Source: an uncultured Candidatus Saccharibacteria bacterium (GTDB lineage: Bacteria; Patescibacteriota; Saccharimonadia; Saccharimonadales; Saccharimonadaceae). From it: 46,170 nt of DNA. The notes beneath the pieces were generated by a model that worked only from the letters and a program-made list of their open reading frames with translations, did no database searches and was not told the origin of the DNA. The stretch covers positions 1 through 46,170 of the forward strand of contig CANBEI010000004.1 in assembly GCA_947367565.1 (NCBI GenBank), read 5' to 3'. This document shows positions 1,398 through 31,926 of this stretch, in pieces (the first letter of the stretch is position 1; each line of letters begins with the position of its first letter). A program made the translations under genes and the position numbers.

Positions 1398-1538
1398 AGT
1401 AATTCCCCTTTCTGTTTGAGAGTATATTAAAGTACGTAAAATACCGTCAGTTTACCTCTGACCAAGGTAGCCATCTGCGGCTAGAAAAAGCCCGAAAGTT
1501 GAGTGCCTTCGGGATTTATCCAGAATCAAATTAAAAGA

Positions 1539-1664
1539 TTAAGACATAATTCCCGCACATAGTTTTGAGAAATTGGCGACTGCCAAACCAAGGCCATAGC
1601 CATTGGTATGACCTGTCGACCAAATGGTCATCAAAAACTGGTGTGCGAAATTATTCCTACACAT
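1539..1664 (-). CDS. Putative 41-aa leaderless ORF, lectin-domain-like tail (MCRNNFAHQFLMTIWSTGHTNGYGLGLAVANFSKLCAGIMS)
   Basis: TTGACA (1694-1699) -17 nt- TACAAT (1671-1676) -6 nt- ATG (1662-1664); terminator-like hairpin cccgaaggcactcaactttcggg downstream. Confidence 0.4.
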   Translation of the reverse strand: MCRNNFAHQFLMTIWSTGHTNGYGLGLAVANFSKLCAGIMS

Positions 1665-1670
1665 ATTTCT

Positions 1671-1699
1671 ATTGTAGCACAGGTTAGCTAAAATGTCAA
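1671..1699 (-). promoter_or_regulatory. Consensus sigma70-type promoter with extended -10
   Basis: TTGACA-N17-TACAAT with CTGTGC immediately before the -10. Confidence 0.75.
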
Positions 1700-1748
1700 G
1701 AGGAGAGGTGGGTTCTAGGTGTTTTTGTCAAAAAATACTAAAAACGAC

Positions 1749-1783
1749 ATACCCCACCAGCAGAAACTCTGCTAATGGGGTAT
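1749..1783. terminator. Hairpin, possible terminator
   Basis: ataccccaccagcagaaactctgctaatggggtat inverted repeat. Confidence 0.5.
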
Positions 1784-1864
1784 TACTGTACCTAAAAATG
1801 TCTATTTTGCCAAACGCAAGAAAATCGCTTGGGTTTGATGAGCTTTGAACTAGCTCCGCTACAA

Positions 1865-1891
1865 AGAACTGACTTCGGGTGAAGTCAGTTC
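1865..1891 (-). terminator. Terminator of the small conserved protein gene
   Basis: gaactgacttcgggtgaagtcagttc inverted repeat just after the stop codon at 1898. Confidence 0.65.
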
Positions 1892-1897
1892 GAGTAA

Positions 1898-2104
1898 TTA
1901 AGCTTTCTTTTTCAAAGTCAAGAAACCGTTGCGTGGGTTCTCGTTCACAACACGATCGGCTGGCAAGTCGCATGGAGTACCTTTGCCACCTTCGGCAGTC
2001 TTAGTGAAGAAATAAATCGTCTGTGGTTTGCCACCACGCAAAGTAACTTCAGACTTGTGCAAATAGTAGGTAACGCCTTTACTGTTGGTATGTTCGTAGG
2101 CCAT
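1898..2104 (-). CDS. Small conserved hypothetical protein (68 aa)
   Basis: Strong SD (aaggaggga) and promoter TTGACA-N17-TAAGAT upstream. Confidence 0.75.
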   Translation of the reverse strand: MAYEHTNSKGVTYYLHKSEVTLRGGKPQTIYFFTKTAEGGKGTPCDLPADRVVNENPRNGFLTLKKKA

Positions 2105-2211
2105 GAGGTCCCTCCTTAAGTTATTATATCTCTATCTTATGCCGAGTCTTCACCGGTGTCAAGCATTTTCTATCATAAACGGTTTAGTAAACTGAGGTAA
2201 CAGGGGTAAAC

Positions 2212-2919
2212 TTAGGATTTGCCAACGAAGAGGAGCGAAACCTTGAGTACGCACCAGATAAAGAGACGCACGATGACGATAGCGATGATAATCAAGCAAG
2301 CAAGGATGGCGAGGCCAGCCCAGCTGGGTGCCCAGAGAGGCGAAGCGTAGTTAATACGAAAAAGCTCGGTCGAGGGGAGATCGGCGACGAGGAGATTGCT
2401 ACTAAGTTCGTCACTTGTAGGGTATTTGTCGAGCTCAGAGGTCCAGCAATCGAGGTAGCCGGGGCTATTCCAAGCCCAACCGTTTTCGATGGCAAGCGGC
2501 TTGCAGATGGCCGAGACGGCAGCATAGATATTGCCGTTTAGGTTCTGATCGTTAGCAAGATTCGCTTCGGCGGCCTCAATCGCGGCATTGGCGGCGCGAA
2601 GGTATTGGTTTTCGAGATAGAACGGCCCAGTGCCAAAGACGATGGATTGAGTACCATTACTCTCGGCGACATTAATGACGACGTGCGAAAAAACGAAGTC
2701 CTGGAGCTTGATAAGACTCTCCTGAATCGCGGTATCATCATTCGCAGCATCAGCATCGAGCACGGCATGGCGCAGATCGGACATTTTCAGATGGTCGAGA
2801 CGAAGAAGCGTAGCGGTCACGAAGGTTAGTGGAATTAGGATTAGCAAGAGTTGCCAGCTACGAACGCCACCAAATTTGCGGAGCGCCTGACGGAGATGAT
2901 TAGATTTCTTGCCACCCAT
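2212..2919 (-). CDS. Hypothetical membrane protein, N- and C-terminal TM segments
   Basis: 235 aa ORF; N-terminal LLLILIPLTFVTA and C-terminal LAILACLIIIAIVIVRLF hydrophobic stretches. Confidence 0.6.
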   Translation of the reverse strand: MGGKKSNHLRQALRKFGGVRSWQLLLILIPLTFVTATLLRLDHLKMSDLRHAVLDADAANDDTAIQESLIKLQDFVFSHVVINVAESNGTQSIVFGTGPFYLENQYLRAANAAIEAAEANLANDQNLNGNIYAAVSAICKPLAIENGWAWNSPGYLDCWTSELDKYPTSDELSSNLLVADLPSTELFRINYASPLWAPSWAGLAILACLIIIAIVIVRLFIWCVLKVSLLFVGKS

Positions 2920-2964
2920 AATTAGTCTAATTATAACACGTTTCCGATATGCTATAATAGTCCC

Positions 2965-4284
2965 ATGAAGATTTATATTTCGGGAATTTCTGGTACGGGG
3001 ATGGGGCCGCTGGCGCTGATGGCGCAGGATGCGGGGATGACAGTATTTGGCTCAGATTTGGCGGCAGGCGCAGTGACGAATGACCTCGTGGCGCATGACA
3101 TGAAACTCTGCTTGGGAGTGCAAGATGGCAACTTTTTGAAGACTTGCGTAAAGAATGAGGGAGTGGACTGGTTTGTCTATACTTCAGCGCTGCCAGAAGA
3201 CCATCCGGAGCTGGTGATGGCGAAGAAGCTGAAACTAAAAATCTCGAAACGAGATGAGTTTTTGAATTATTTACTGAAAAAGTTAAAGCTGAAGCTGATT
3301 GCGGTCGCGGGAACACACGGGAAGACTACGACAACAGCAATGATTGTCTGGATGGCGCAGCAGCTGGGGATTCCGATGTCGTATCTGATTGGGACGACAC
3401 TGCCGTTCGCGTCGGCGGGACATTATGATCCTAAGTCAGAATATTTTGTTTATGAGGCGGATGAATATGACCGAAATTTTCTAGCGTTCAAACCGTGGCT
3501 CGCAGTAATTCCGACCGTGTCGTATGACCACCCGGATATTTATCCGACAGAGGAGAATTACCGAGAAGCATTCCAGCAATTTGAGCAGCAGAGTAAAGAA
3601 GTGATTCATGGCGATGAGATTGCGGCAGGGATCACGCTGGCTGGCGAGGCTAGGCGGTATGATGCGACGCTGGCGTTGGACGTGGTGGAGCGGATTATGC
3701 CGAAACCGAAGGAGTTATTGAAGATTCCGGCACTACAACGACGCAAGTTGCTCGCGGCGATTAATAGCTTCCCTGGCGTAGGACGAAGATTTGAGCAGGT
3801 ATCAGAGGGGTATTATTCGGATTATGCGCATCATCCAGAAGAGGTGGAAGCTACGGTCGGAATTGCGCTAGAAGAAGCGGACCGGAGAGGACTAAAGGGT
3901 GTCGTGGCGGTATATGAGCCACATCAGAATACACGACAGGCGGAGCTGATGGATTTGTATAGCAATGCGTTTGTCGGTGTGATGAAACTATACTGGACGC
4001 CAACGTACTTGACACGCGAGAACCCAAAAATCAAGGTAGTGAAGCCGGAGCAATTTATCGATAAATTGGAGAATAAGAAGGTAGCTGAAGCGGCAGAGCT
4101 GGACGATGAATTGGCGGAGAAAGTCAAAGAATGGCATAAAAAGGGATATCTCGTGCTGTTAATGTCGGCGGGGCCGGCGGATGCGTGGATCCGAAAACTG
4201 GTATATGCCGGGAACCAAGAGTCGGCGGCCACGCAGCTAGTGCATGCGCCACGCAGCGCGGACGAGGGTAGCGAACGGCTATAG
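2965..4284 (+). CDS. Mur ligase family protein (MurC/Mpl-like)
   Basis: N-terminal ISGTGMGPLA, ATP motif AGTHGKTTTT, central YEADEYDRNF and SYDHPD, C-terminal YAHHPEEV. Confidence 0.85.
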   Translation: MKIYISGISGTGMGPLALMAQDAGMTVFGSDLAAGAVTNDLVAHDMKLCLGVQDGNFLKTCVKNEGVDWFVYTSALPEDHPELVMAKKLKLKISKRDEFLNYLLKKLKLKLIAVAGTHGKTTTTAMIVWMAQQLGIPMSYLIGTTLPFASAGHYDPKSEYFVYEADEYDRNFLAFKPWLAVIPTVSYDHPDIYPTEENYREAFQQFEQQSKEVIHGDEIAAGITLAGEARRYDATLALDVVERIMPKPKELLKIPALQRRKLLAAINSFPGVGRRFEQVSEGYYSDYAHHPEEVEATVGIALEEADRRGLKGVVAVYEPHQNTRQAELMDLYSNAFVGVMKLYWTPTYLTRENPKIKVVKPEQFIDKLENKKVAEAAELDDELAEKVKEWHKKGYLVLLMSAGPADAWIRKLVYAGNQESAATQLVHAPRSADEGSERL

Positions 4285-4331
4285 GGTGTGCCGGGGGTAT
4301 ACGGGCTACAGAGTCTGTGTGAGAGCTAGAA

Positions 4332-4385
4332 ATGTAAGACATTGTATGCACATTGTACATACAATGTGCATACAATGTCTTACAT
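4332..4385. repeat. 26-bp perfect inverted repeat with 2-nt loop between convergent genes
   Basis: ATGTAAGACATTGTATGCACATTGTA-ca-TACAATGTGCATACAATGTCTTACAT. Confidence 0.9.
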
Positions 4386-4389
4386 AGCG

Positions 4390-4749
4390 TTACTCCGTAA
4401 GCTCGGTATCGGTTTTCGTTCCCTTGATACCTAATGATTCATCTGACAGGGGTTTGCTCGAGAAAGCATCCGGTAAGTTTTTCAGGCGTTCTTCGATTTT
4501 TTCGAGTTCTTCAAGATATTGATCTAGCTCTTCCTCGTCAAGTGCGCCCGAGTCGCCATAAGTAAAATTCGTCGTAACCTCAGTCTCCGCTTCGACTTCT
4601 TCCTTATCAGGCAAAAACCCTGGGCGTGAACGATCCAGATAGATATCACCGGTATTGCGATAAATCGCCAGACTAACGGACGTCGTGCCGCCAGCAATCA
4701 GAATCGACCCAAGACCGAGGATTAACAAATTGCGGCTACCACGCGTCAT
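4390..4749 (-). CDS. Hypothetical membrane-anchored acidic protein
   Basis: 119 aa ORF with one N-terminal TM; overlaps the next gene by 4 nt. Confidence 0.6.
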   Translation of the reverse strand: MTRGSRNLLILGLGSILIAGGTTSVSLAIYRNTGDIYLDRSRPGFLPDKEEVEAETEVTTNFTYGDSGALDEEELDQYLEELEKIEERLKNLPDAFSSKPLSDESLGIKGTKTDTELTE

Positions 4750-5300
4750 TTTTTAATCTCCTTGCGTAATTTTACAACGGCTTGGTATTGCTCGGCAGTG
4801 AGTTTTTTCAACTCTTCGGTAGCAAGCCGGACTTTCTCGCGACGTTCACGTACGACTTTGAGCTGATCATAAAATTTCTCAGGCTCAACCCGACAATCAA
4901 TGCCGATTAAATTCTCCATCTCACGCATATAGTTCGTGTAATCATCTCGAAAAGCAATCTGGGCATCCGAGAATTCGGACTGAATACTAGAAAGCGTGGG
5001 CCGATTATTGCGTACGAGGCGCAGATTAAGGGGAGTAATAAACCTACTTGCGATAGTTTCATAAGTCGTTCCGAGATAAGTACGCGTCTTAGAATCGGCT
5101 TTTTGCAACTGGCTGAGGGATTGCTTGATAGTCGAACAATTGCTCGAAATAGCATTTGCCTCTTCTTTCGATAACGCCGATACCGACACTGGCGAGACAA
5201 TACCTACGGTCGCTGCTGCTGCCGCGCACACTACCAGACCCGCAACCACGGTGCGCATAACCCTACGGACGATACAAACCATTGTGCTTTTTTCCGTCAT
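4746..5300 (-). CDS. Hypothetical secreted/coiled-coil protein
   Basis: 184 aa; signal-peptide-like N-terminus VVAGLVVCAAAAATVGIVSPVSVSA. Confidence 0.6.
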   Translation of the reverse strand: MTEKSTMVCIVRRVMRTVVAGLVVCAAAAATVGIVSPVSVSALSKEEANAISSNCSTIKQSLSQLQKADSKTRTYLGTTYETIASRFITPLNLRLVRNNRPTLSSIQSEFSDAQIAFRDDYTNYMREMENLIGIDCRVEPEKFYDQLKVVRERREKVRLATEELKKLTAEQYQAVVKLRKEIKK

Positions 5301-6309
5301 AAATTAAAGTTGGGATGCCTTTGACATGGATGGTGGATTCGACCATAGTTTTCACCTGTGCCATAATTTCGGTAACTTCGTCACCTAATGCGGCCCGCTG
5401 AATCTGCTCAATTTCCTTTTTGCTGGCGCCAAAATCCTGTAGCCATTCCTGTAAGAGCTGCTCAGCCTTCTCGCGACTGGCGCCCAAGAAAACCGCCTGA
5501 TAGTTAACTCCATTGTCGTCAGATTCAGTAAACAGACGGTCAACAATTTGCATCGTATAGTCTGTATCGAGTAGGTCTGAAGCATGGATATAGCGCGCAA
5601 TTAGATCGGAATTGGCGAACTTGTAACCACCATCGGGTAATTCGATTGGATAAACCATGAGTACGGTATTATTCTGCTCAAAGAAGCCAGAGTCTTTTTG
5701 ATTACGATAAGACTGCATGCAAATCGTGCAGCCGGGGTCGAAAATGTCAACCGCTAACGGCTTATTGTCCTGGTACTGCGTTGCAAAGCTATAGGGCTCA
5801 ACTAGATAGTCCTCAGCGTTCCAGCTATGAAAACGGTCGGGGATATTAGTAAAGATTTCTCCCCATTCGGAAAACCAGCGTCCAGTCCACTCAATCGGAT
5901 TTGTCGGTTCAGCTGCTTCGATACCGCAAACTTCAGCACCCAAAGCGCAGCTTTCGGGCTGAGAGACATTACAAGTGCCAAATACCCAAATCGCGAGCAA
6001 AGCCTTAATCGACTCAACTAGAGACCAAATCGTAATAAAGACAATCAAAACCGATCCAACTTCGATCGCCGTACCGAGCGGTTTGACCCATTTCGGGTGC
6101 TTCAAAACGACTTTGCTGAGCAGACTATTTTTAACATCATCTTTGAAGTTCGTCTCGCATTTTTGAAGGGTAACTTTCTTGCCGACGCAGCCCCAGGATT
6201 TTTTAAAAACCGCCCAATATTTGCGACCAATGTCGCGCCGGAAAATGCTCAAAATAGCGACAAACACCCCAACAAGACATAGGATAATAAACGCAGCAAT
6301 ACAGACCAT
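5263..6309 (-). CDS. Membrane protein with thioredoxin/DsbA-like domain
   Basis: TM segments plus 'VDIFDPGCTICMQSYRNQK' (CxxC) and 'HVKGIPTLIYDGKKHNGLY'; TATAAT 6 nt before ATG. Confidence 0.65.
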   Translation of the reverse strand: MVCIAAFIILCLVGVFVAILSIFRRDIGRKYWAVFKKSWGCVGKKVTLQKCETNFKDDVKNSLLSKVVLKHPKWVKPLGTAIEVGSVLIVFITIWSLVESIKALLAIWVFGTCNVSQPESCALGAEVCGIEAAEPTNPIEWTGRWFSEWGEIFTNIPDRFHSWNAEDYLVEPYSFATQYQDNKPLAVDIFDPGCTICMQSYRNQKDSGFFEQNNTVLMVYPIELPDGGYKFANSDLIARYIHASDLLDTDYTMQIVDRLFTESDDNGVNYQAVFLGASREKAEQLLQEWLQDFGASKKEIEQIQRAALGDEVTEIMAQVKTMVESTIHVKGIPTLIYDGKKHNGLYRP

Positions 6310-6335
6310 GAGTTAATTATAGCACACTTCGAGAA

Positions 6336-8087
6336 CTATTCGTCTTCGACCACTTCGAGATGTAGCTCATCCAACTGACTACCATCAACGCCGGATGGTG
6401 ATTCCATCATTAAGTCAATCCCGGATCCATTCTTTGGGAACGCGACGACGTCACGGATACTCTTCGCGTCAAGCAGCTCCATCAGCATGCGGTCAATGCC
6501 GAAAGCGCAGCCAGCATGCGGAGGGGCGCCAAACTTAAAGGCATTGAGCATGCCGCCAAATTTCTCTGCGACATATTCCTTATCGTAACCAAGCACGCCA
6601 AAAACTTCATACATAATCTCTGGGTTATAATTGCGTACTGCGCCAGAACATGACTCAAGCCCATTCATGACCATATCGTACTGATCAGCGACAATATCTA
6701 GCTTGTTCTCGGTCTCGCGAATTGCCTTCAAGCCGCCCTTCGGCATCGAGAAGGGATTGTGTCCAAAATCAAGCTTATTGTTCTTCTCATCCCATTCATA
6801 GAACGGAAAATCAACGATCCAGCAAAGCGCAACCTTCTGACTATCTTTCAAACCAAGGGCATCAGCAAAGGCAATGCGCATAACGCCCAAAACCTTATTC
6901 ACCTTGTCACGCTCGTCAGCACCAAAGAACACTGCGTCGCCATCCTGTGCGCCGGTCTTCTCTCGAATCGCCTTCAATTCCTCATCTTTTAAAAACTTCG
7001 CAATCGGACTGCGTACACCATCATTTTCGTACAATATGTAAGCCAGACCGCCGGCGCCATTTTTGCGTGCTAGCTCTGTGAATTCGTCAATTTGTTTGCG
7101 AGTGAACTTACTACCGCCGGGTACGCGAATCGCTTTTACGCATGGCGTCTGGAAAACCTTAAACTCGCAATCTTTCAGATCATCAGACAAGTCAATCAGC
7201 TCAAGACCATACCGCAAATCTGGCTTGTCCGTGCCGTACTTCTCCATCGCTTCGCGATACGGAATGCGCGGAACATCCTCGCTAACCAATTCTTTGCCAG
7301 CGAATTCAGTGACTAGTTTCTTAATCAGCGGCTCTAAAGCCAGCCGCACAACCTCACCATCATCAACGAAAGCCATTTCGCAGTCAAGTTGATAGAAGTC
7401 GCCATAAAGCCGATCGGCACGCGGATCTTCGTCGCGGAAGCAGGGTGCAATCTGGTAGTAACGCGGTACGCCGCCGACCATCAGGAGTTGCTTGAACTGC
7501 TGCGGAGCTTGCGGCAAAGCATAGAATTTACCAGGATGAATTCGGCTCGGTACTAAGAAATCTCGGGCCCCCTCAGGGCTAGAGTTAGCCAAAATCGGAG
7601 TAGTAATTTCAATGAAACCATTTTCATCCATATACTGACGCATGAAACGATAATATTCGGCACGGCGCTTTAACATCTGTTGCATACTTGGGCGACGCAG
7701 GTCGAGATAACGATACTTCAAGCGCAATTCTTCGCCCGACATATCGCCCTCATCGTGAGTATTGACCGGAAGTGGCTCGGATTTATTAATCAGTTCCAGC
7801 TCATCAACAACAATCTCAATCTCGCCAGTCTCGATATTCGGATTTTTGAGCTCAGGAGCGCGCTCACGCACCATACCGGTTGCACGCACGACGAACTCGT
7901 CACGTAAACCCTCGGCGGTCTGAAAAGCTTCTGGCGTATCTGGCGTAATGACAAGCTGAATAATCCCCTCGTGGTCACGCAAATCAATAAAAATCAAACC
8001 ACCATGGTCACGGCGCGAATTCACCCAGCCAGCTACTTCTACGGTTTTGCCAATTTCTGTTTTTAATTTCGTCGATAAACTTCTCAT
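6336..8087 (-). CDS. aspS: Aspartate--tRNA ligase
   Basis: Class II aaRS; VAGWVNSRRDHGGLIFIDLRDHEG, PQAPQQFKQLLMVGG, GCAFGIDRMLMEL. Confidence 0.95.
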   Translation of the reverse strand: MRSLSTKLKTEIGKTVEVAGWVNSRRDHGGLIFIDLRDHEGIIQLVITPDTPEAFQTAEGLRDEFVVRATGMVRERAPELKNPNIETGEIEIVVDELELINKSEPLPVNTHDEGDMSGEELRLKYRYLDLRRPSMQQMLKRRAEYYRFMRQYMDENGFIEITTPILANSSPEGARDFLVPSRIHPGKFYALPQAPQQFKQLLMVGGVPRYYQIAPCFRDEDPRADRLYGDFYQLDCEMAFVDDGEVVRLALEPLIKKLVTEFAGKELVSEDVPRIPYREAMEKYGTDKPDLRYGLELIDLSDDLKDCEFKVFQTPCVKAIRVPGGSKFTRKQIDEFTELARKNGAGGLAYILYENDGVRSPIAKFLKDEELKAIREKTGAQDGDAVFFGADERDKVNKVLGVMRIAFADALGLKDSQKVALCWIVDFPFYEWDEKNNKLDFGHNPFSMPKGGLKAIRETENKLDIVADQYDMVMNGLESCSGAVRNYNPEIMYEVFGVLGYDKEYVAEKFGGMLNAFKFGAPPHAGCAFGIDRMLMELLDAKSIRDVVAFPKNGSGIDLMMESPSGVDGSQLDELHLEVVEDE

Positions 8088-8123
8088 AAGATATATTATA
8101 CCATACTCCGGACATAAGATAAA

Positions 8124-9854
8124 CTACGGAGTGCGGTTCTTGGTCGCTTTGTTTACAGCCCAGTACTCAACATCAGAGAAACGGTCCGTCGCATAAACAA
8201 GGCGATCGTCTTCGGAGAAGGTTCGGGCGTTTTTATTGAAATAATACGTTAGACTTGCCTGGTAAATACCAATCGCCGGAACATCATTCACCCAATAGCG
8301 TAGGAAGGTTTCGTACTTTGCCGTGCGCAAGGTTTCGTTCATAGTACTACGGGCGGCGAGAATTGAGTCATCGACGAGCGCATTGCGGTAGTTTGAAAGA
8401 TTGAGGCCGGAGGCAGTAGCTTGTGATGAATGATAATATGGAAACAAATCCGGATTAGCACCAAGCTCAATTTCATAGATCAGGATATCATAGTTGCGCT
8501 GGCGGATAACGTTCATCAAGAAATCTTGTCCGGGATTATAAATCGAAAGCTCAACGGCGAAGCCGAGCTTTTCCAGTTGTTCTTCGAGATTATTCGCAAG
8601 CTCAGGATAATACCCCGTACTAATCGTGGCGAGACGAATCGTCTGGCCCGAGATGCCTGCATCGCGCAATGCGGTCTGCGCAGCACTCAAATCGTAGCCC
8701 GGAATCTCTGGATAGGCGTCGAGATTAAGTTCGGATTTCAAAATTGGATAGTCCAATGGCTCTTCGCCGTCAAGCACAGAGCGAAGCTCATTCATATTGA
8801 TGCCCTGGCGGACCGCCTGACGCACGCCTTGATTTGAGAGAACCGAACTTGCTGTATTCAAAAAGGCGTAAATACCACTGGCGATCGTAGTTTGCTTCTC
8901 ATAAACGAGCGCCGAGGTTAAAGTTTCACTATCAAGCGGAGAGAGATCGGCAGTAGCCGTCACTTCCCCGGTCAACAAAGCATCGGCAATTCCAGTAGAA
9001 GTCGTATAGGTGCGAATCGCAAAGTTATTGAGCATTGGCATGCCCTTGTAATAATTTTGATTTGCGACGAGATAAACAATTTTATCTCCGCTGTTGTCGA
9101 CGCTCTGCGTAGCGTTAAAAGTAAAGGCACCCGACGTCACGGGATTGGTACTAAAATTATGTTCTAGGACCTTACTAGGCTGCACCTCACCGAGGATATG
9201 CTCAGGCAAAATTGGAATATTCAGAGTTGACGCGAAATCCGCGTAAGGTGACGGCAAAGTAAAGATGATTGACTCGCCGGAAAGCTCGACTGAAACCCCG
9301 GAGAAGTTGGAAGAATACGAAGTATTAATCTCAGTACTCTTCATGAGACTAACCGTAAATAAAACATCGTCAAGCGTAATCGGCTCTCCGTCCGACCAGC
9401 GCAAATCAGGCTTCAGAGTTACGGTCCAGACTTTACCAGTCTCATCTGGTACAATCGAGTCAGCAAGACCAAGCCCAACATGGCCTGAATAGTCAATCGT
9501 CGACAACGTCGAAAACATAAGCTTTGAAAGGACTTTTTCACTGCCGGTCGTAGCAAAAAGTGGATTCATAGTCGATATGCTCCCTACAGTGGCCTCGATA
9601 TATGTGCCACCATCGACGTAGGCCTGGGCGGTATAGGATTGGTTGTACCAAAAAAGCTGAGTCAGAGCAAGCGAGATTACCACAATCACGAGAAGCCCCC
9701 ACTCTAGAATCAATAGACGTACTTGGCGCGCGTTTGGCAGACGGCTAATCAGATTTTCTTGGAGGTGCTCTCGGCTACTCTCTTTCGCCTGTGTTGAAAA
9801 CCTCTCCCACTTTTTGCTAAATTTTTGCCCACGCTTTTTGAAAGTTTGTTTCAT
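8124..9854 (-). CDS. ABC transporter substrate-binding protein, family 5 (SBP_bac_5), membrane anchored
   Basis: GSISTMNPLFATTGSEKVLSKLMFSTL, LKPDLRWSDGEPITLDDVLFTV, VRQAVRQGINMNEL; N-terminal TM. Confidence 0.8.
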   Translation of the reverse strand: MKQTFKKRGQKFSKKWERFSTQAKESSREHLQENLISRLPNARQVRLLILEWGLLVIVVISLALTQLFWYNQSYTAQAYVDGGTYIEATVGSISTMNPLFATTGSEKVLSKLMFSTLSTIDYSGHVGLGLADSIVPDETGKVWTVTLKPDLRWSDGEPITLDDVLFTVSLMKSTEINTSYSSNFSGVSVELSGESIIFTLPSPYADFASTLNIPILPEHILGEVQPSKVLEHNFSTNPVTSGAFTFNATQSVDNSGDKIVYLVANQNYYKGMPMLNNFAIRTYTTSTGIADALLTGEVTATADLSPLDSETLTSALVYEKQTTIASGIYAFLNTASSVLSNQGVRQAVRQGINMNELRSVLDGEEPLDYPILKSELNLDAYPEIPGYDLSAAQTALRDAGISGQTIRLATISTGYYPELANNLEEQLEKLGFAVELSIYNPGQDFLMNVIRQRNYDILIYEIELGANPDLFPYYHSSQATASGLNLSNYRNALVDDSILAARSTMNETLRTAKYETFLRYWVNDVPAIGIYQASLTYYFNKNARTFSEDDRLVYATDRFSDVEYWAVNKATKNRTP

Positions 9855-17540: not shown

Positions 17541-19760
17541 TTAGTTGCTTTTTACTTCTTTTGTAAAATCACCGTGAGCTTCAATAGCAAGCTGGCGAAT
17601 CTGTGCGAGGCTTTTAAATCGTCTGTAATATGTATGCGGGCTAGCGAGACTAGCATCGTGCTCAATTTCTCTTGTACTCAACCAATGACCGGCAGCCTTA
17701 CTTTCTCCCCAATACTCTTCAATAAGCCTTTCACTTGGTCTTGGCATAGCAGTATATCTTGGTTGCTGTGCCATCTCTTCGGGCAAATCTCCACAAAAAT
17801 CACGAGTGAAGTTTATTATATCGTATATGCTAGAACCAATCTCCGTACGAAAATGAGTCATAGATGGCAACTGGCTATCTCGTTGAACTTCCATAATCGT
17901 TAGCCAGTGACCTCTTCTCAGGCTCGCCTCGTAGTAGAGTTTTGCTAAACGTTCCGCCTCGTCAATTTCTGTATTAATAGGACCGTATCGCTCTTTAATT
18001 TCATTAATAAGATCTTTTCTACTACTGAATGTTTTATTGTACTTATCATTACTTGCAAGGTTTGCATTTTGGGCAATTTCAATGTTACTCAACCAGTGGC
18101 CAGCTCGTTTACTTTCCAACCAATATCCCTCCAAGAGACTGTCGCGTGAATATGTTTTTGTCTCTTGACCGCACAATGCTGCAAATTTAACAACCGTACC
18201 AAACTGAGCCTGTATCGTACTAACCATGGGTAATTTGGGATTACTATCAACAGAGCGAGTCGTGATCCTTTCTCCTCTACCGATCATTGCTCTTCCTTCG
18301 ATAAGCATCTCCTCCCGACTTATACAAACGCTCCTGGCTTTGTTCAGCGGAATTTTCGCAATTTCTAGCACATCATTCAAAGTAGCTACTTTGAAAATTC
18401 GGCAAACCGCTCTCGTACTTGGCATGTCTGGTTCCGCGTCAATGCTTTGATATGTTACCTTCTTGTCTCGTCGATACATGGTCTGAAGTTGCGCTATGAT
18501 TTCTTCCTTGGTCCATTTATTTCCTTTTTCAAATATACTGACGATATCAATCAGCTCAATACTGAACCGAGTGTCAATGTTGAGTGCAAACTTTTCACGA
18601 GAACTAGCATCACCATCCCCATGTGTACCTTCGTCGCCATGCGGTGGCCGGACTCTGAAATCATCAATTTCCTGTTTTAACTCGAGTATCATCTTAATCC
18701 GTTCACAGTTATTCACGAAATCCAGCACTAAGACCTTGTCTTTACCCTCAGAGAGGCGCGTGCCGCGTCCAAGCTGCTGGTAGAAAACCGCTGGCGAGAC
18801 CGTATTGCGCAGGAAGACGATGACATTTGCATCGGGAACGTCAATACCCTCATTCAACATATCGACGGAGATAATTGTATTAATCTCTCCTTCCTTAAAA
18901 GACTTTAGAGCACAATCGTTTGCCGAATCACCGTTTTTCTTGTAAACCAATGCCGCTTTATTACCTATAAGTTTAGCAATCTTGCGCGCGTGTTCAATGG
19001 TTCGACAAAAAATCATCTTTTTCGGGTTTTCTACTTCGGCAGAATATTCACCGATGAGCCGGACAATCTCTTCATCGCGCTTATCAATGAAAAGTGTACG
19101 GTTGAGTTGTTTAATGGATACTTTTTCGTCGCTGGCGAGATATTCATCTAGCCGTTCTTGCGATAAATCGTCCAGAACCAGCCGATAATCACACTCCGCG
19201 ATCAAGCCGCGCTTCGTCGCCTCGACAAAGCCGAGTTCATAGACCGGCTCACCATAAATCTCTTCAATCTTCTGGCCGTCGAGACGGTCGGGTGTCGCCG
19301 TTAGACCAAGTAAAAACTCTGGTCGAAAATAGCGAATTGTCGGAAAATAAGTACGCGCGTGGCTATGATGCGCTTCATCAACAATGACATAGGAAAACTC
19401 GTCCTTCGGGAAATCCTTACGATTGTCTTTCATAGTCTGAAAGGTCGCGAAAAGAAAATTCGTCGGACGCGTCGCCTTGTCATAGTTGACATACATACCA
19501 TAGCTAAACTCTTCGCCAAAATACTCCTGGAATTTTTCCTTCGTCTGGCGAAGGATTTTCTCAGAATGACAAAGCACAAGCACGCGGGCGAACCGCTTAT
19601 CGGCAAGATACTTCTCGACCGCGAAGGCCGAAGTATAGGTCTTACCGAGTCCGCTCGCCATGACGACGAGGGCGTGTTTTTCGCCATTCGCAATTGCATT
19701 GTCAATCGCTACTAAACATTCCCGCTGATATTCTCTGGGTTTAATCTTCGGATTTTTCAT
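17541..19760 (-). CDS. DEAD/DEAH helicase (type III Res/UvrB-like) with repeated C-terminal HNH-associated-like repeats
   Basis: Walker A MASGLGKTYTSAF, DEAHHSHA, LTATPDRLDG, QQLGRGTRLSEGKDKVLVLDFV; C-terminal repeats with GHWLSNIEI/GHWLTIMEV/GHWLSTREI. Confidence 0.85.
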   Translation of the reverse strand: MKNPKIKPREYQRECLVAIDNAIANGEKHALVVMASGLGKTYTSAFAVEKYLADKRFARVLVLCHSEKILRQTKEKFQEYFGEEFSYGMYVNYDKATRPTNFLFATFQTMKDNRKDFPKDEFSYVIVDEAHHSHARTYFPTIRYFRPEFLLGLTATPDRLDGQKIEEIYGEPVYELGFVEATKRGLIAECDYRLVLDDLSQERLDEYLASDEKVSIKQLNRTLFIDKRDEEIVRLIGEYSAEVENPKKMIFCRTIEHARKIAKLIGNKAALVYKKNGDSANDCALKSFKEGEINTIISVDMLNEGIDVPDANVIVFLRNTVSPAVFYQQLGRGTRLSEGKDKVLVLDFVNNCERIKMILELKQEIDDFRVRPPHGDEGTHGDGDASSREKFALNIDTRFSIELIDIVSIFEKGNKWTKEEIIAQLQTMYRRDKKVTYQSIDAEPDMPSTRAVCRIFKVATLNDVLEIAKIPLNKARSVCISREEMLIEGRAMIGRGERITTRSVDSNPKLPMVSTIQAQFGTVVKFAALCGQETKTYSRDSLLEGYWLESKRAGHWLSNIEIAQNANLASNDKYNKTFSSRKDLINEIKERYGPINTEIDEAERLAKLYYEASLRRGHWLTIMEVQRDSQLPSMTHFRTEIGSSIYDIINFTRDFCGDLPEEMAQQPRYTAMPRPSERLIEEYWGESKAAGHWLSTREIEHDASLASPHTYYRRFKSLAQIRQLAIEAHGDFTKEVKSN

Positions 19761-25283: not shown

Positions 25284-25353
25284 ATGCCCACTTAATACTT
25301 ATGGAATAATTATAGCATACTATCGCCGTCATCGTCTATGTTAAAATAGAGAG

Positions 25354-27834
25354 GTGAAACCGTATCAATTCTTCATGCGCGCACTGAATGAGATGTACGC
25401 GAGCGCAGAAAAGCGAGGGATAAAAACCCCAGAACAAATTAGTCAGGGGCGGTTTGCTGATTTCGGTTATCAGATCGATGCGGTTAAGCAAGGCTTAGAT
25501 TGTTTAGAAAAATATGACGGAGTGATTATTGCGGACGTGGTCGGATTAGGAAAGTCGATAATTGCAGCAACAATTGCATATAATCTTACAATGTCAAGAA
25601 TAGTAGTCATCACACCGCCGCATCTTAAAAAGCAATGGGGAGGATACGTTGAGAAATTTCAGTTACAAAACGTACAGGTCGTCAGTTGCGGGAAGCTAGA
25701 AGAGCTGCATCATATGGCACCGGCGACCGAGCCGACGTTATATATTATCGACGAAGCGCACCGATTTCGAAACGAAAACACCACGCAATACCGGATATTG
25801 CACCAAATAGTACGCGCAAAATCGGAGAATAAGGTTATATTATTGACGGCGACGCCGTACAATAATCACCCGAAGGATATTTATGCGCTGATAAAATTAT
25901 TCCAAATCCCAGGTCGAGCGACTTTGAACACCGTAGACAATCTCGGATTGAGATTTGGACAGCTAATTGCAGAATATAATCAATTAGAAAAGCTAGGTAA
26001 ACGCAAAATGGCTCCAGAAGTCAAGGCACAGCTTAGCGAAGTGTCGCAGCGAATGCGAACGATAATCGAACCGGTTGTAATTCGCCGGTCACGAGTCGAT
26101 CTAGCGGAGGTGAAAAAATATGCGGAGGACTTGGAGAAGCAAAAGATTAGTTTCGCAAGAGTGCAAGACCCAGAGTTAGTTAATTATGATCTAGGCGAGT
26201 TGACGGAGAAATATTGCAAAGTATTGGAAGAATTAAATAATGGAGAGTTCCGCGGAACAAAATATAAACCGCTAACTTATCTACGAGATGAGGAAGAATT
26301 TAGTATAGAATATGCACCAATTTTTCGTTTCAATCGTACACAACAACTTAATATGGCGAAGTTGGCGCGACGACTTTTCGTATTGCGCTTTGAAAGTTCG
26401 CAAGATGCATTTCGAAAAACTCTGGAGAATATGATTGCGGCGCATCGCGCAAGCGTTGAACTTTGGCGGCAGGAAAAATTAGTAGCCATTTCTAAAAACA
26501 AAACTCTAAAAAACTTAGATGGTGTGGAGGATGAGAGGTTTACAATACCAAGTAAACTATTAAGGGCGGAATTCTTGGAAGACGTAACGGCGGATTTGGA
26601 ATGGCTAGAAAAGACGCATCAAAAATGGTTTGGTCAAGATAGGACAAAAAGCGACCCAAAACAGGAACGTGTCGAAACGATAATTGAAGAATTATTGCGC
26701 GAAAACCCGGAGCGAAAAATCGTAATTTTTACAAGTTTTGCGGACACGGCGCAATATATAGTTCAAAAACTGCGCGCAAGCGGCTTCACAAAAGTATTAT
26801 CGTACACGAGTAATAGTAGTCAAATAGTGAAAGATGTTGTGACGCGGAATTTTGATGCAGCGGTAGACTGGGGTGAGCGCGAAGATGATTATAGTATCAT
26901 AGTAGCGACAGATGCCTTGTCAGAAGGTTTTAACTTGCATCGTGCGGGCGTGATAATTAATTATGATATACCTTATAATCCGACACGAGTAGTGCAAAGA
27001 GTTGGACGGATTAATCGAATAGATCAACGCGTATTTGATGAGTTAAAAATATATAATCTATTTCCAACGGCAATCGGGGAGAATATAGTTAACGTCAAAG
27101 GAATTTCTAGCCTGAAAATATTACTGATGAATCAAGTTATTGGAAATGATACAAAAGTACTGACGAGAGATGAAGATGTTGAGGAGTTTTTGCAACAGCA
27201 ATATCAAACGGTTGATGTGGATAGAGAGGCAGCATGGGATAATAAATATCGAAATATTTATAATGCAGGATTAGAAACGAGAGATTTGGCGCGTAAAATA
27301 CCGCTAGGCGCGACAATCACAAGACAACGTCATGAATTGAAGGATACGAGCATTGCCTTAGTGCGACGTGGCAGGAATGTTGTGTTTCTGAGATCAACTA
27401 AGGGCGACGACATAGATGTCTTGGCGCCGGAAAAAGCGTTGGAAATTTTGCGAGCCGATAAAGATGAAGAGGAGATAAAAAGCGACCAGTCCGATAGCTT
27501 ACAGAAATTTGAGCGTGAACTCAAGAAGCCATATGAGCTACCAAAAATGCTCGGCAATCATGGTTATGCACTTGACATAATTGAAGTGCTGAGTGAGGCA
27601 TGTACGGATGAAAAGGAGTATTTAGACAAATTGTACGATGGGATACGAAGATATGATGATTTATGTGAGGCGGAACTGCAAATAATTGCACGACTCGAAC
27701 TAGACAACCTAAGACAGGCGTTACAAAAATTGCGAGTACAAATTCCAGAATGGTATTTGGATGCAAGTCAAGCGAAAGCCGAGACGATTGAGTCCGCGAA
27801 GGCAGAGATTGTATTGGTGGAGAACTTTCAATGA
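25354..27834 (+). CDS. SNF2-like helicase of a helicase-methyltransferase module
   Basis: Motif I ADVVGLGKSIIAA, II IIDEAHRF, III LLTATPYNN, V/VI ATDALSEGFNLHRAGVIINYDIPYNPTRVVQRVGRINRID. GTG start exactly 6 nt after TAAAAT. Confidence 0.85.
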   Translation: MKPYQFFMRALNEMYASAEKRGIKTPEQISQGRFADFGYQIDAVKQGLDCLEKYDGVIIADVVGLGKSIIAATIAYNLTMSRIVVITPPHLKKQWGGYVEKFQLQNVQVVSCGKLEELHHMAPATEPTLYIIDEAHRFRNENTTQYRILHQIVRAKSENKVILLTATPYNNHPKDIYALIKLFQIPGRATLNTVDNLGLRFGQLIAEYNQLEKLGKRKMAPEVKAQLSEVSQRMRTIIEPVVIRRSRVDLAEVKKYAEDLEKQKISFARVQDPELVNYDLGELTEKYCKVLEELNNGEFRGTKYKPLTYLRDEEEFSIEYAPIFRFNRTQQLNMAKLARRLFVLRFESSQDAFRKTLENMIAAHRASVELWRQEKLVAISKNKTLKNLDGVEDERFTIPSKLLRAEFLEDVTADLEWLEKTHQKWFGQDRTKSDPKQERVETIIEELLRENPERKIVIFTSFADTAQYIVQKLRASGFTKVLSYTSNSSQIVKDVVTRNFDAAVDWGEREDDYSIIVATDALSEGFNLHRAGVIINYDIPYNPTRVVQRVGRINRIDQRVFDELKIYNLFPTAIGENIVNVKGISSLKILLMNQVIGNDTKVLTRDEDVEEFLQQQYQTVDVDREAAWDNKYRNIYNAGLETRDLARKIPLGATITRQRHELKDTSIALVRRGRNVVFLRSTKGDDIDVLAPEKALEILRADKDEEEIKSDQSDSLQKFERELKKPYELPKMLGNHGYALDIIEVLSEACTDEKEYLDKLYDGIRRYDDLCEAELQIIARLELDNLRQALQKLRVQIPEWYLDASQAKAETIESAKAEIVLVENFQ

Positions 27835-30782
27835 CGCAAAGAGATTTGTTTGATAGTAAATTTGATGAGCGAAAATTTCGGGATTTCGTCGTAAGGTTAT
27901 TACCGGATTTCGAGAAAGAGCGGCGACCAATTGTAACGAATGGAATTTTGAAAAATGTAAAAATACTAGGTTCAAGTGAAGCTTGTAAATTAGCGGTGAT
28001 TGTCGTACGAGTGGACGAAACACAAAGCAAAAAACGAATAATGATTACACAAGAGGCGTTTCGAATACTAAAACAACATCGAATCCGAAACGCGCTAGTT
28101 GCGTTTTATACCGATTCGGAAAACTGGCGACTTTCGCTATTAACCTCTACACTAGAAGTCAGAGACGGAAAGGTGATTAGTAAGACTGGCGACCCGCATA
28201 GATATTCGTATTTGCTCGGACCGAAGGCAAAAGTTAAAACACCAAGAAAGTTTCTGCTGAAGCAAGGACCAGTCGCAAATCTAAAAGAACTGAAAGAAAG
28301 ATTTTCGGTCGAAGTCGTCAACAAACAATTTTATAGTTTAATTGCGACACAATTTATAAAATTAATCGGTGGTGAACGCGGTGAGGGGCGAACACATAAA
28401 GTTTATCCAGCGCAGCTAAAAATGCCGGTGGGTGAAGAAAAGGGCACCGTAGAATTCGCAGTGCGATTAATTGGACGAGTTATCTTCTGCTGGTTTCTAA
28501 AGGAAAAACGAAGCGCTGCGGGCTTGAATTTAATACCGGAAAATTTGGTATCAGTGAACGCGGTGCGACGGCATCCGGATTATTACCATAACGTATTGGA
28601 GTCCGTATTCTTTGGTTGTTTGAACACGAAGTTCGAGGAGCGCGATGAGTTTTTAAGACAGGCGCCGTTTAGCCAAATTCCCTATTTGAACGGCGGGATG
28701 TTTAACCCGCAAGTGAGCGATTTTTATAAAAAGACAGAACGAGTTGAGATTCCTGATGAGTGGTTTGCGGAATTATTTGAGATTTTAAGCCAGTATAATT
28801 TTACAGTTGATGAGAATACGGAATTGGACGTTGATTTGTCGATTGACCCGGAAATGTTGGGGAGAATATTTGAAAACTTGCTCGCAGAAATCAATCCGGA
28901 AACAGGCGAATCGGCGCGCAAGGCAACAGGAAGCTATTATACGCCGAGAGAAGTTGTTGCATATATGGTGGATGAATCTCTGAGTGATTTTTTGAGACGA
29001 GAGACGGGGCTTACGACCGATAAGGTTACGAGTTTAATGGGGTATGACGATATAAGCAGTGCAGAGCTGACGACTAAAGAACGAAAGTCGGTTGTTGAGG
29101 CGTTGGCGAGATTAAAAATCTTAGATCCAGCGTGCGGGTCGGGCGCGTTTCCGATGGGAATTTTGCAGAAAGTATTTTATATCCTACAACGGGTCGATCC
29201 AAGCGGAGCGCTGTGGTACGAGAAACAGAAGACAACGGAAAATTTGCGCGAGAAATTTGCGAACGGAAATTATGATTATATTCGTAAACTTGGAATTATC
29301 CAACAAAGTATTTTTGGTGTGGATATTCAGCCGATTGCAACGGAAATTGCAAAATTGAGATGCTTTTTGGCCTTAATGATTGAAGAGAAAGTTGATGACA
29401 CGAAACCAAATCGCGGGATTCATCCGCTACCAAATTTAGATTTTAAATTTGTAACGGCGAATACGTTAAAGTTCTTGCCGGAAAATCCAAACGACCCATT
29501 CAATATGTTTGAAAAAGGCGAGGAGGTGGAGTTAGTTAGGAAAGTCCGCAGCGATTATTTTATGGCGAATAAGGCGGGGCGCGCATTTTTGAAAGCGGAA
29601 TTTGATGAAGCGCAAAGTGGAATTTCGGAGACGAAGCAAGAGCTAGCAGCAGCGCGATATCGAAGCCTAGTGAAGTGGAAACCATTTGTAAATCAACAGA
29701 CAGATTGGTTTGATAGTGAATGGATGTTCGGCGTCAAAGAATTCGATATTATAATCGGCAACCCACCGTATGGCGCTACGCTCACAGAGGGCGAGCAAAA
29801 ATACTACTTGGAACATTATAAGGCAGCAAAGTCGCAAGGAGGGGTAAAAGGATCGCTAGATACTTTTGCTTTGTTCGTAGAACGAGGTCTAGGGATGCTA
29901 AAAACGGGCGGGAGGTTAGCATATATCGTACCGATGGCGATTACGTCGAATGACGCGATGACGGCACTGCAAAACGAGATAGAACAAACGTGCGAGACGA
30001 TACGAATTGCTTCATTCATGGATCGACCACGACAAATTTTTGAGCATGCCGGAGTGCGCACATCGATTGTGTTTCTAGAAAAAACAAACACGCCAACAAA
30101 AAAGCTATATATGACACGACCGATGCGGCGCGGAAGTGAGATGTCGATACGAGAAGTGCTTGAACGGCTAGAATATGTTGAAGCATACAAGTACAAAATA
30201 TATGGGCGGTACCCAAAAGTCGGAAATCGATGTGAAGTTGAGATATTGGAGAAAATTTTTCAAACCGGGCGATGCGTAGAAAATTATGCTGATACGGATT
30301 CGGATGAGATGTTTTATTACCGGGCGGCAGGAGGGCGATATTTTAATGTTGTCACCTTGTCGGCGGTTGAGACTTCGGCGGAGCGAGAGTATCGCGCAAG
30401 ACACGCGGCATTAATCGCAGCATGCCTATCGACATCGTTGTTTTGGTTTTACCAACAAATTTATACAGACGGACTAAATTTGAAGGGATATGAAATCGAT
30501 AAATTTCCTTTGCCGAATTTTGAAGAAGTCGATATGAAAACGTTAGAAAAAATTGAAGCAGCGTATTTGCGATATTTGAATGAGATTGAAGCGAACGTAA
30601 ACCTAAAGAACGCAGCAGAAGAATCGCGGTATAGCGTTCGGCAGTTCAAAGAGTATAAAATTGCAAAATCGAAAAAGCTAATCGATGAGATGGATGATTT
30701 GGTGGGGCCGTTGTATGGACTAAATATGAAAGAAGTGGAATATATTAAGCGATACGAAGAGAAGTTTCGGCAAAACGATTAA
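27831..30782 (+). CDS. Eco57I-like class I N6-adenine DNA methyltransferase
   Basis: Motif I ILDPACGSGAFPMGIL, motif IV IIIGNPPYGA, SYYTPREVVAYMVDESL; ATGA overlap with the helicase. Confidence 0.88.
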   Translation: MTQRDLFDSKFDERKFRDFVVRLLPDFEKERRPIVTNGILKNVKILGSSEACKLAVIVVRVDETQSKKRIMITQEAFRILKQHRIRNALVAFYTDSENWRLSLLTSTLEVRDGKVISKTGDPHRYSYLLGPKAKVKTPRKFLLKQGPVANLKELKERFSVEVVNKQFYSLIATQFIKLIGGERGEGRTHKVYPAQLKMPVGEEKGTVEFAVRLIGRVIFCWFLKEKRSAAGLNLIPENLVSVNAVRRHPDYYHNVLESVFFGCLNTKFEERDEFLRQAPFSQIPYLNGGMFNPQVSDFYKKTERVEIPDEWFAELFEILSQYNFTVDENTELDVDLSIDPEMLGRIFENLLAEINPETGESARKATGSYYTPREVVAYMVDESLSDFLRRETGLTTDKVTSLMGYDDISSAELTTKERKSVVEALARLKILDPACGSGAFPMGILQKVFYILQRVDPSGALWYEKQKTTENLREKFANGNYDYIRKLGIIQQSIFGVDIQPIATEIAKLRCFLALMIEEKVDDTKPNRGIHPLPNLDFKFVTANTLKFLPENPNDPFNMFEKGEEVELVRKVRSDYFMANKAGRAFLKAEFDEAQSGISETKQELAAARYRSLVKWKPFVNQQTDWFDSEWMFGVKEFDIIIGNPPYGATLTEGEQKYYLEHYKAAKSQGGVKGSLDTFALFVERGLGMLKTGGRLAYIVPMAITSNDAMTALQNEIEQTCETIRIASFMDRPRQIFEHAGVRTSIVFLEKTNTPTKKLYMTRPMRRGSEMSIREVLERLEYVEAYKYKIYGRYPKVGNRCEVEILEKIFQTGRCVENYADTDSDEMFYYRAAGGRYFNVVTLSAVETSAEREYRARHAALIAACLSTSLFWFYQQIYTDGLNLKGYEIDKFPLPNFEEVDMKTLEKIEAAYLRYLNEIEANVNLKNAAEESRYSVRQFKEYKIAKSKKLIDEMDDLVGPLYGLNMKEVEYIKRYEEKFRQND

Positions 30783-31792
30783 TAGTCACTGTGGCCTTCG
30801 TCGTAAGCGTCTTCGAGAATATCTCGGCAAGTCTGGTCACAATTGTCGCTCTCATAATAGCTGTCGCCATAGTAGCCATAGAGCTTGTCATATTGACCCT
30901 GACTATATGCCTCCATTTCTAAATCATCCCAGCAGCGACCAGCCTCGTAATGTTGACAAGTACGTGATGCGCTACCCGACGTATTGGTGCTCGTGCTGCT
31001 GGGGCTATCCTGATGGTATTTATTGTAATTTTCTTCAGCTTTGCGTTTTTCTTCAGCTTTTTTGTCGAGATATTCGGCACGTTCACGACAGAGATTAACC
31101 TCGTCGCGAGCACTATGGCCTGGATGATTAGTATCATAAAGTTCACAAGCACGATACACTGGCAGTCGTGTTATAATAAGCGTCTTAGTCGCTTCGCCGC
31201 GTTTATTCTGAACTTTAATGCGGTACTTAGTTGGCTCAGTATCAGCAGATTCATTAAACCGCAAACCTCCGCCATCAATGATATAAGTAAATTTATCATC
31301 TAGGGTCGTAGTCTGATCTTTTAAATCGGGATTATTCACGCTACGCCAAGAAGCACTGTCTGGTTTATTTTCGAGGGCAAGCTTGGTAATTGAGAGCGTG
31401 GCCTTGGCTTTTTTGTAAGTAGCAGCTTCCGGGGTAACCTCGATCACGATATTTGGTGTATTGTCGCAATTATATTCATAGTGGAGGCAGTGGTCTGTTA
31501 GTGTGACGTAATAGTTTCCGTTTTCTTCGGTGATTACTTCGCCAAGGAGCGGTTCAAGATCGGCATTAGCGCTGATATAATCCGGTTTTAACTCAAGTGA
31601 GATTTCAGGAGCAACCACTGGACTGCCATACCAAGAGACATTTGCGCAGAGAAAAGCATGAATGAGACCTAGGAGGGATGCGCCGCAAAGAATTGAACCT
31701 AGGATAGTTCCTTCGCGCCCGAATTGCGAAAAGAAATTCCAAAGTTTCAGCAGGATGGCGAGAAGAATAATAACGAGAATAAAAGTAAACAT
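30779..31792 (-). CDS. Hypothetical membrane protein with extracellular domain and cysteine-containing C-terminus
   Basis: Two N-terminal TMs; stop codon overlaps the methyltransferase stop convergently. Confidence 0.6.
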   Translation of the reverse strand: MFTFILVIILLAILLKLWNFFSQFGREGTILGSILCGASLLGLIHAFLCANVSWYGSPVVAPEISLELKPDYISANADLEPLLGEVITEENGNYYVTLTDHCLHYEYNCDNTPNIVIEVTPEAATYKKAKATLSITKLALENKPDSASWRSVNNPDLKDQTTTLDDKFTYIIDGGGLRFNESADTEPTKYRIKVQNKRGEATKTLIITRLPVYRACELYDTNHPGHSARDEVNLCRERAEYLDKKAEEKRKAEENYNKYHQDSPSSTSTNTSGSASRTCQHYEAGRCWDDLEMEAYSQGQYDKLYGYYGDSYYESDNCDQTCRDILEDAYDEGHSDY

Positions 31793-31810
31793 GTCAAAAA
31801 TTTCGATTAT

Positions 31811-31849
31811 CAAATCTGATTTCTGAAACTCCAGCTTCAGGAATCAGAT
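31811..31849. terminator. Hairpin immediately 3' of tRNA-Arg
   Basis: aatctgattcctgaagctggagtttcagaaatcagatt. Confidence 0.6.
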
Positions 31850-31926
31850 TGGTACACCGGATAGGACTCGAACCTACGACCCTCTGTTCCGAAGACAGAT
31901 GCTCTAATCCACTGAGCTACCGGTGC
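31850..31926 (-). tRNA. tRNA-Arg(TCG), CCA encoded
   Basis: Reverse complement gcaccggtagctcagtggattagagcatctgtcttcggaacaga...gttcgagtcctatccggtgtacca. Confidence 0.93.

What the first reader, a model, noticed from the sequence alone, without database searches (positions are those of the whole stretch)
25342..30782. Two-gene helicase-methyltransferase module with no recognisable nuclease
A SNF2-like helicase (25354-27834) is translationally coupled (ATGA overlap) to an Eco57I-like N6-adenine methyltransferase (27831-30782). This resembles helicase/methylase pairs in DISARM, BREX and type ISP-like systems, but no other component is adjacent. From memory, related helicases often carry an N-terminal phospholipase-D-like nuclease; here the protein begins directly with PYQFFMRALNEMYASAEKRGIKTPEQI just before the helicase core. 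The TAAAAT-6-GTG promoter and the divergent pilB leave no room for a missing domain. It may be a nuclease-less (non-degradative) defence module or a system acting with a distant nuclease.
Basis: partly seen in the sequence, partly recalled or inferred. Interest (0 to 1): 0.65.

Follow-up and report, generated by a model that had tools for sequence, protein, structure and literature searches.

The report
Nuclease-less SNF2 helicase–methyltransferase gene pair
In a small-genome Saccharibacteria-type bacterium, a common two-gene restriction-modification-like unit has lost its whole DNA-cutting domain but kept an intact motor, an intact methylating enzyme and a proper promoter, so it probably now marks DNA rather than destroys it; an unusual but modest variant of a known kind.

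Summary
A SNF2-family helicase (25354-27834, 826 aa) overlaps by ATGA an Eco57I-type N6-adenine methyltransferase (27831-30782, 983 aa); no nuclease was found in either protein or in the neighbouring genes. Comparison shows why. This two-gene module is widespread: in every intact relative recovered (79 of 80 genome-collection loci, the other cut by a contig end; all readable relatives in Patescibacteria, including the same genus, family and order) the helicase is about 1,100 aa and begins with a 215-250 aa PLD/HKD nuclease domain. Only the window protein lacks it, starting at the conserved '-PY-' just after that domain; the tree nests it among PLD-bearing relatives, so the loss is secondary. 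No PLD domain occurs elsewhere in the 93%-complete genome (five positive controls ring). The truncated ORF is not obvious debris: TATGTTAAAAT lies exactly 6 nt before its GTG, this genome's leaderless-start signature, and helicase and methylase motifs are intact. Best reading: a restriction-disabled derivative whose methyltransferase acts as a solitary modification enzyme, with the motor kept or decaying. Non-degradative defence is possible but unsupported. It is not DISARM, BREX or a DUF499/Hma system. New variant of a known kind; moderate-to-low interest.

The parts
25309..25319 (-). extended -10 (TATGCTATAAT) of the divergent pilB gene
   Evidence: sequence and motif scan
25337..25347 (+). 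extended -10 TATGTTAAAAT of the helicase-methylase operon, 6 nt before the GTG: leaderless-type start
   Evidence: motif and genome-wide spacing peak at 6
25354..27834 (+). SNF2/SF2 helicase, 826 aa, GTG start, lacking the N-terminal PLD nuclease domain of all relatives; motifs GLGKS (64-68), DEAH (133-136), TATP (165-168), DALSEG (520-525), QRVGRINR (548-555) intact
   Evidence: Pfam; alignments; table
27831..30782 (+). Eco57I-family N6-adenine DNA methyltransferase, 983 aa; motif I DPACGSGAF (432-440) and NPPY (644-647) intact; start overlaps helicase stop (ATGA)
   Evidence: Pfam; alignment
27831..28310 (+). methyltransferase N-terminal domain (about residues 1-160), alpha/beta; the glutamate of 'VFE' kept in 25 of 35 family rows is Val here; no conserved E-x-K lysine in the family (6 of 35)
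30108..30779 (+). methyltransferase C-terminal module (residues about 760-983): short variant replacing the TaqI_C-like specificity region of the relatives; resembles the C-terminus of a 557-aa methyltransferase in L052 (26% identity, E=2.5e-13)

Best explanation
The pair is a derivative of a widespread two-gene, restriction-modification-like module. In the complete module the first gene is a fusion of a PLD/HKD nuclease to a SNF2 translocase (restriction effector) and the second an Eco57I-type N6-adenine methyltransferase with its own target-recognition region (protection). In this lineage the PLD domain was removed exactly at the domain boundary and the promoter now stands at the leaderless distance from a GTG at the start of the helicase part. 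Shown: architecture, uniqueness, secondary loss, intact motifs, promoter. Inferred: transcription starts at the GTG; the methyltransferase, translationally coupled to the helicase gene, still methylates adenines at a target set by its C-terminal module; no DNA is cut. The unit then behaves as a solitary (orphan) modification system, with the helicase either carried along for coupled translation, kept as a non-cleaving DNA motor, or slowly decaying.
For: All readable relatives have the PLD domain: 79 of 80 genome-contig loci (L063 is cut at a contig end; L064 checked by eye), all readable Patescibacteria hits including G567 (same genus), G855 (same family), G666, G524 and G088 (same order), and a frameshifted gene in G132. 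Their PLD motif is invariant (HxK...GSxN) and is called by Pfam PLDc_2 at 8e-12 to 5e-8. The window branches inside a 100%-supported clade of PLD-bearing helicases. No PLD elsewhere in the genome, five positive controls ring. Promoter at leaderless spacing. Methylase keeps 129 of 135 family-invariant residues, helicase 131 of 146, with none of the 15 helicase changes in a helicase motif. The genome holds no other N6_Mtase-family protein. Orphan methylases are common in prokaryotes (review PMC12707154).
Against: A helicase kept open over 826 codons with intact ATPase motifs is more than an orphan methylase needs; if the domain loss is old, the motor must still be useful. Methylation activity and transcription are not shown. 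The age of the loss cannot be dated because no close relative shares it.
Confidence: 0.5

Rival explanations
1. Nuclease-independent defence: the helicase translocates on unmodified incoming DNA and blocks its replication or transcription, or recruits an unrelated host nuclease, while the methylase marks self.
For: Helicase motifs intact; operon with a species-typical promoter; sits upstream of pilB, a variable site which in another species of the genus (G050) holds cas9-cas1-cas2 and a CRISPR array. Published precedent for the related DUF499 systems: 17% lack the fused HKD nuclease and carry other nucleases nearby (PMC12839542).
Against: No nearby or recognisable partner nuclease in the window or PLD in the genome; unique among over 100 relatives, so no sign of a conserved nuclease-free lineage; helicase has lost more family-invariant residues (15 of 146) than any relative tested (next 10 of 156).
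Confidence: 0.2
2. Decaying remnant without function: the domain loss is a step in the erosion of a captured defence module in a reduced genome.
For: Longest helicase end branch of 25 rows (1.11 against a median of 0.28; methylase 1.36 against 0.62) and most lost invariant residues.
Against: Both ORFs fully open, catalytic motifs intact, promoter spacing exactly canonical. L041, which has its PLD domain, shows similar acceleration (0.95 and 1.49), so the long branch is not specific to the loss.
Confidence: 0.2
3. Assembly artefact: the junction between pilB and the truncated helicase is a mis-join or collapsed deletion in the MAG.
For: MAG of 70 contigs; truncated form seen in one genome only.
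Against: pilB is complete with its own promoter, the helicase has its own promoter at the canonical distance, and both share one clean 70-bp intergenic region; a mis-join would not be expected to make this.
Confidence: 0.06

Closest known systems
Two-gene PLD/HKD-SNF2 helicase + Eco57I methyltransferase modules (e.g. L064, L061, L060 in Saccharibacteria; Lactiplantibacillus plantarum plasmid NZ_CP113421)
   Same: Same gene order and overlap, helicase 43-46% and methylase 43-50% identical to the nearest, stand-alone two-gene unit
   Different: Window lacks the 215-250 aa N-terminal PLD domain; methylase has a different, shorter C-terminal module
DUF499-centred BREX-related systems, type 2 (Hma-like; PMC12839542)
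   Same: HKD nuclease + Swi2/Snf2 helicase effector and N6-methyltransferase; a minority lack the fused nuclease
   Different: Those need DUF499 and DUF3780 genes; DUF499 is absent from this genome
DISARM (DrmD, DrmMI)
   Same: SNF2-like helicase and adenine methylase with weak similarity
   Different: DrmD model 146.6 bits against a cut-off of 610; no drmA, drmB or drmC neighbours
SauUSI (PLD-helicase-SRA type IV enzyme; PMC12707154)
   Same: PLD nuclease fused before an ATPase in the complete relatives
   Different: SauUSI is a single protein with an SRA reader and no methylase

Membership tests
Two-gene PLD-SNF2 helicase / Eco57I methylase module | SNF2 helicase homologous over its full core and C-terminus | tested here: met
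   37-46% identity over residues 1-826
Two-gene PLD-SNF2 helicase / Eco57I methylase module | Overlapping or adjacent downstream Eco57I-type methyltransferase | tested here: met
   ATGA overlap; Eco57I E=6.2e-25; same arrangement in relatives
Two-gene PLD-SNF2 helicase / Eco57I methylase module | N-terminal PLD/HKD nuclease domain | tested here: not met
   Absent; begins at the helicase linker; not elsewhere in the genome (controls)
DISARM | DrmD above the curated cut-off | tested here: not met
   146.6 bits against 610
DISARM | drmA, drmB, drmC in the locus | tested here: not met
   None among the window ORFs scanned with Pfam
BREX | PglX/BrxX above the curated cut-off | tested here: not met
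   BREX-1 56.1 bits against 500
BREX | PglZ and BrxC in the genome | not tested
   Not seen among window ORFs scanned; not searched genome-wide
DUF499-centred BREX-related (Hma) | DUF499 ATPase | tested here: not met
   No PF04465 match in the genome at E<=0.1; the control genomes rang only in T. maritima
Type ISP restriction enzyme (LlaGI-like) | Nuclease, helicase, methylase and specificity region in one polypeptide | tested here: not met
   Two genes and no nuclease domain
Solitary (orphan) DNA methyltransferase | Methylase motifs intact with no cognate nuclease | tested here: met
   Motifs I and IV present; no PLD found
Solitary (orphan) DNA methyltransferase | Methylates DNA in vivo | not testable with these tools
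   Needs native long-read or SMRT data

The most novel reading that the evidence does not exclude
A SNF2 translocase and an adenine methylase that form a working, nuclease-free unit: the motor reads methylation state and blocks or remodels unmodified DNA (or acts as an epigenetic regulator) without cutting, after excision of its ancestral PLD nuclease.
Probability: 0.18. Interest if true: 0.6.

Novelty: new variant of a known kind. Interest (0 to 1): 0.33.

Why it matters
If the truncated unit still works, it is a natural domain-deletion experiment: it would show what the SNF2 motor of a widespread, mostly unstudied restriction-modification-like family does without its nuclease, and whether 'restriction' in this family needs cutting. 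If it is only an orphan methylase with a fading motor, it documents, with the promoter re-set at the right spacing, how a reduced genome disarms a restriction system and keeps the modification. The comparison also shows that the complete two-gene family is common across Bacteria, including Patescibacteria.

Tried and rejected
Hidden nuclease in the helicase C-terminus: AlphaFold model of residues 575-826 (pLDDT 78.9, pTM 0.55), Foldseek against PDB gave nothing at E<=0.001; the top match is RapA, weak at E=0.28. Hidden nuclease in the methylase N-terminus: model of residues 1-190 (pLDDT 84.4, pTM 0.77) has an alpha-beta3-alpha-beta order that recalls PD-(D/E)XK, but Foldseek gave no nuclease and no match at E<=0.001, and the E-x-K lysine is present in only 6 of 35 rows; in the window both positions are changed. 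So an inactive PD-(D/E)XK-like domain is a possibility, not a result. PLD remnant upstream: the 70-bp intergenic stretch is taken up by two promoters; no in-frame remnant. PLD supplied in trans: none found. Frames that looked PLD-less in other genomes: L064 (motif variant GSNN, present), G132/L152 (frameshift, PLD present upstream), L063, G168, G505 (contig ends). Phage origin: the only viral-contig relative is 25% identical over part of the helicase; phage records give at best 25-27%. Relaxed selection specific to the helicase: suggestive only, since L041, which keeps its PLD, shows like acceleration.

Full report
Observation. The helicase ORF runs 25354-27834 (GTG, 826 aa) and the methyltransferase 27831-30782 (ATG, 983 aa) with an ATGA overlap. 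Pfam calls SNF2-rel_dom and Helicase_C in the first and Eco57I and N6_Mtase in the second, and no nuclease in either. Upstream, an in-frame TAA (25342) and the start of the divergent pilB (25283) exclude a longer reading. A tail-to-tail ORF of 344 aa without a Pfam family (30779-31813, minus) and a tRNA-Arg follow.

What the relatives look like. Searches of the window's relatives, of 380 genomes spread over the phylum, of 393 genomes of the order and 295 of the family and a scan of the GTDB genome collection gave over 100 relatives. They are two-gene units: a helicase of about 1,050-1,130 aa followed, usually overlapping or within a few bases, by an Eco57I-type methylase of about 1,000-1,200 aa. 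The alignment shows that the window protein matches from its second or third residue to its end, while the others carry a further 208-263 residues in front. Pfam names that extension PLDc_2, and the PLD motif HxK ... GSxN plus a following Glu is invariant in 15 aligned rows, with one GSNN variant. Of the 80 collection loci, 79 have it; the other is cut by its contig end. In the phylum set the apparent exceptions are contig or locus ends or a frameshift. The nearest organisms with the module, G567 (same genus; record title Candidatus Saccharibacteria, L060), G855 (same family, L061) and G666 (same order, L064), all have the PLD domain. The window protein is therefore the sole nuclease-less member found.

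Direction of change. In trees of 25 rows the window helicase sits within a 100%-supported (SH-aLRT) group of seven with PLD-bearing helicases, and the methylase groups with L061 and L064. Loss of the nuclease in this lineage is thus far simpler than an ancestral absence. The gene pair lies in a variable site: in G040, which shares nudix-M1 peptidase-pilB, pilB is preceded by a DUF2130 gene; in G050 the same site holds Cas9, Cas1, Cas2 and an eight-repeat array of 66-bp period. Capture of defence genes upstream of pilB therefore recurs in this genus.

Is the truncated gene real? In the 21 stretches of this genome that were read, hexamers TA[TAC][AG]AT stand exactly 6 nt before a candidate start 44 times in 705, against 1-3 at spacings 3-5, 14 at spacing 7 and 1-10 at longer spacings. 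This is the mark of leaderless transcripts (inference from spacing; not measured). The helicase gene has TATGTTAAAAT at spacing 6. Such an extended -10 occurs 59 times in 814 kb of both strands, so its presence at exactly that distance from a random deletion end is of the order of 1 in 14,000. The most economical view is that the original promoter was kept or re-set so that the motor part is expressed; coupling by ATGA then carries ribosomes into the methylase.

State of the proteins. GLGKS, DEAH, TATP, DALSEG and QRVGRINR are intact in the helicase; DPACGSGAF and NPPY in the methylase. Against 22 near relatives the helicase has lost 15 of 146 otherwise invariant residues (next worst 10 of 156 in L041), none in a motif, with a cluster at 342-383; the methylase 6 of 135 (L041: 6 of 141). 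The helicase end branch is the longest (1.11, median 0.28), the methylase branch also long (1.36, median 0.62), but L041 is close in both while keeping its PLD. The methylase C-terminus differs from the TaqI_C-type region of its relatives and resembles that of another methylase (L052 1080-2753): probably a change of target site (inference).

No hidden nuclease. Models of the methylase N-terminus (190 aa) and of the helicase C-terminus (252 aa) gave no PDB match at E<=0.001, and none of the listed matches is a nuclease. The methylase domain has a secondary-structure order that could be a PD-(D/E)XK relic, but without a conserved catalytic lysine in the family. Neither PLDc_2 nor a 15-row profile of the relatives' PLD domain finds a match in the genome, while the latter finds all five control genomes at 1e-76 or better. 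About 7% of the genome may be missing, so a partner cannot be wholly excluded.

Mechanism. For complete members the arrangement (nuclease-translocase plus self-sufficient methylase, alone on an 11.8-kb Lactiplantibacillus plasmid with a replication gene) points to an ATP-dependent restriction-modification unit; the related DUF499 systems are described in the same way (PMC12839542). For the window the cutting step is gone. What remains most likely is adenine methylation by the second gene (confidence 0.5 for the whole reading), with the motor idle, helpful or fading. A non-cutting defence is possible (0.2), as is plain decay (0.2).

Membership. It is not DISARM or BREX: helicase and methylase fall far below the curated cut-offs and partners are missing. 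It is not a DUF499/Hma system. It descends from the two-gene PLD-SNF2/Eco57I family but fails one of its defining features, so it is filed as a variant. No paper in the held library that was found names the two-gene family as such; subscription literature and REBASE could not be searched.

Noticed in passing
L184 (G050:C2:14000-27000) 912-6024: Next to pilB in another species of the same genus: Cas9 (1101 aa), Cas1, Cas2 and an array of 8 repeats with 66-bp period. The pilB-upstream site seems to collect defence genes; CRISPR is reported to be rare in this group of bacteria (PMC4742961).
   Followed up: partly
window genome-wide (G000); e.g. 2947-2964, 25337-25356: Strong leaderless-start signature: TA[TAC][AG]AT exactly 6 nt before start codons, 44 of 705 candidate starts.
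   Followed up: partly
17541-19760 (-): ResIII-type helicase with a weak homing-endonuclease-associated repeat (HNH_repeat, E=0.008) in a repetitive C-terminus; a 41% relative lies near pilB in G050.
   Followed up: no
L033, L035, L036, L037, L044 flanks: Genes whose N-termini look like Cas4-like nucleases (e.g. 'LSRSKIELLFDCPRCFWF') lie within a few kb of the module in several Patescibacteria; none in the window. Not tested by profile.
   Followed up: no
L222 (G524:C18) 4546-8502: A relative helicase of 1318 aa with about 215 further residues in front of the PLD domain.
   Followed up: no
30779-31813 (-): 344-aa ORF without a Pfam family, overlapping the methylase stop tail to tail, next to tRNA-Arg (31850-31926).
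   Followed up: no
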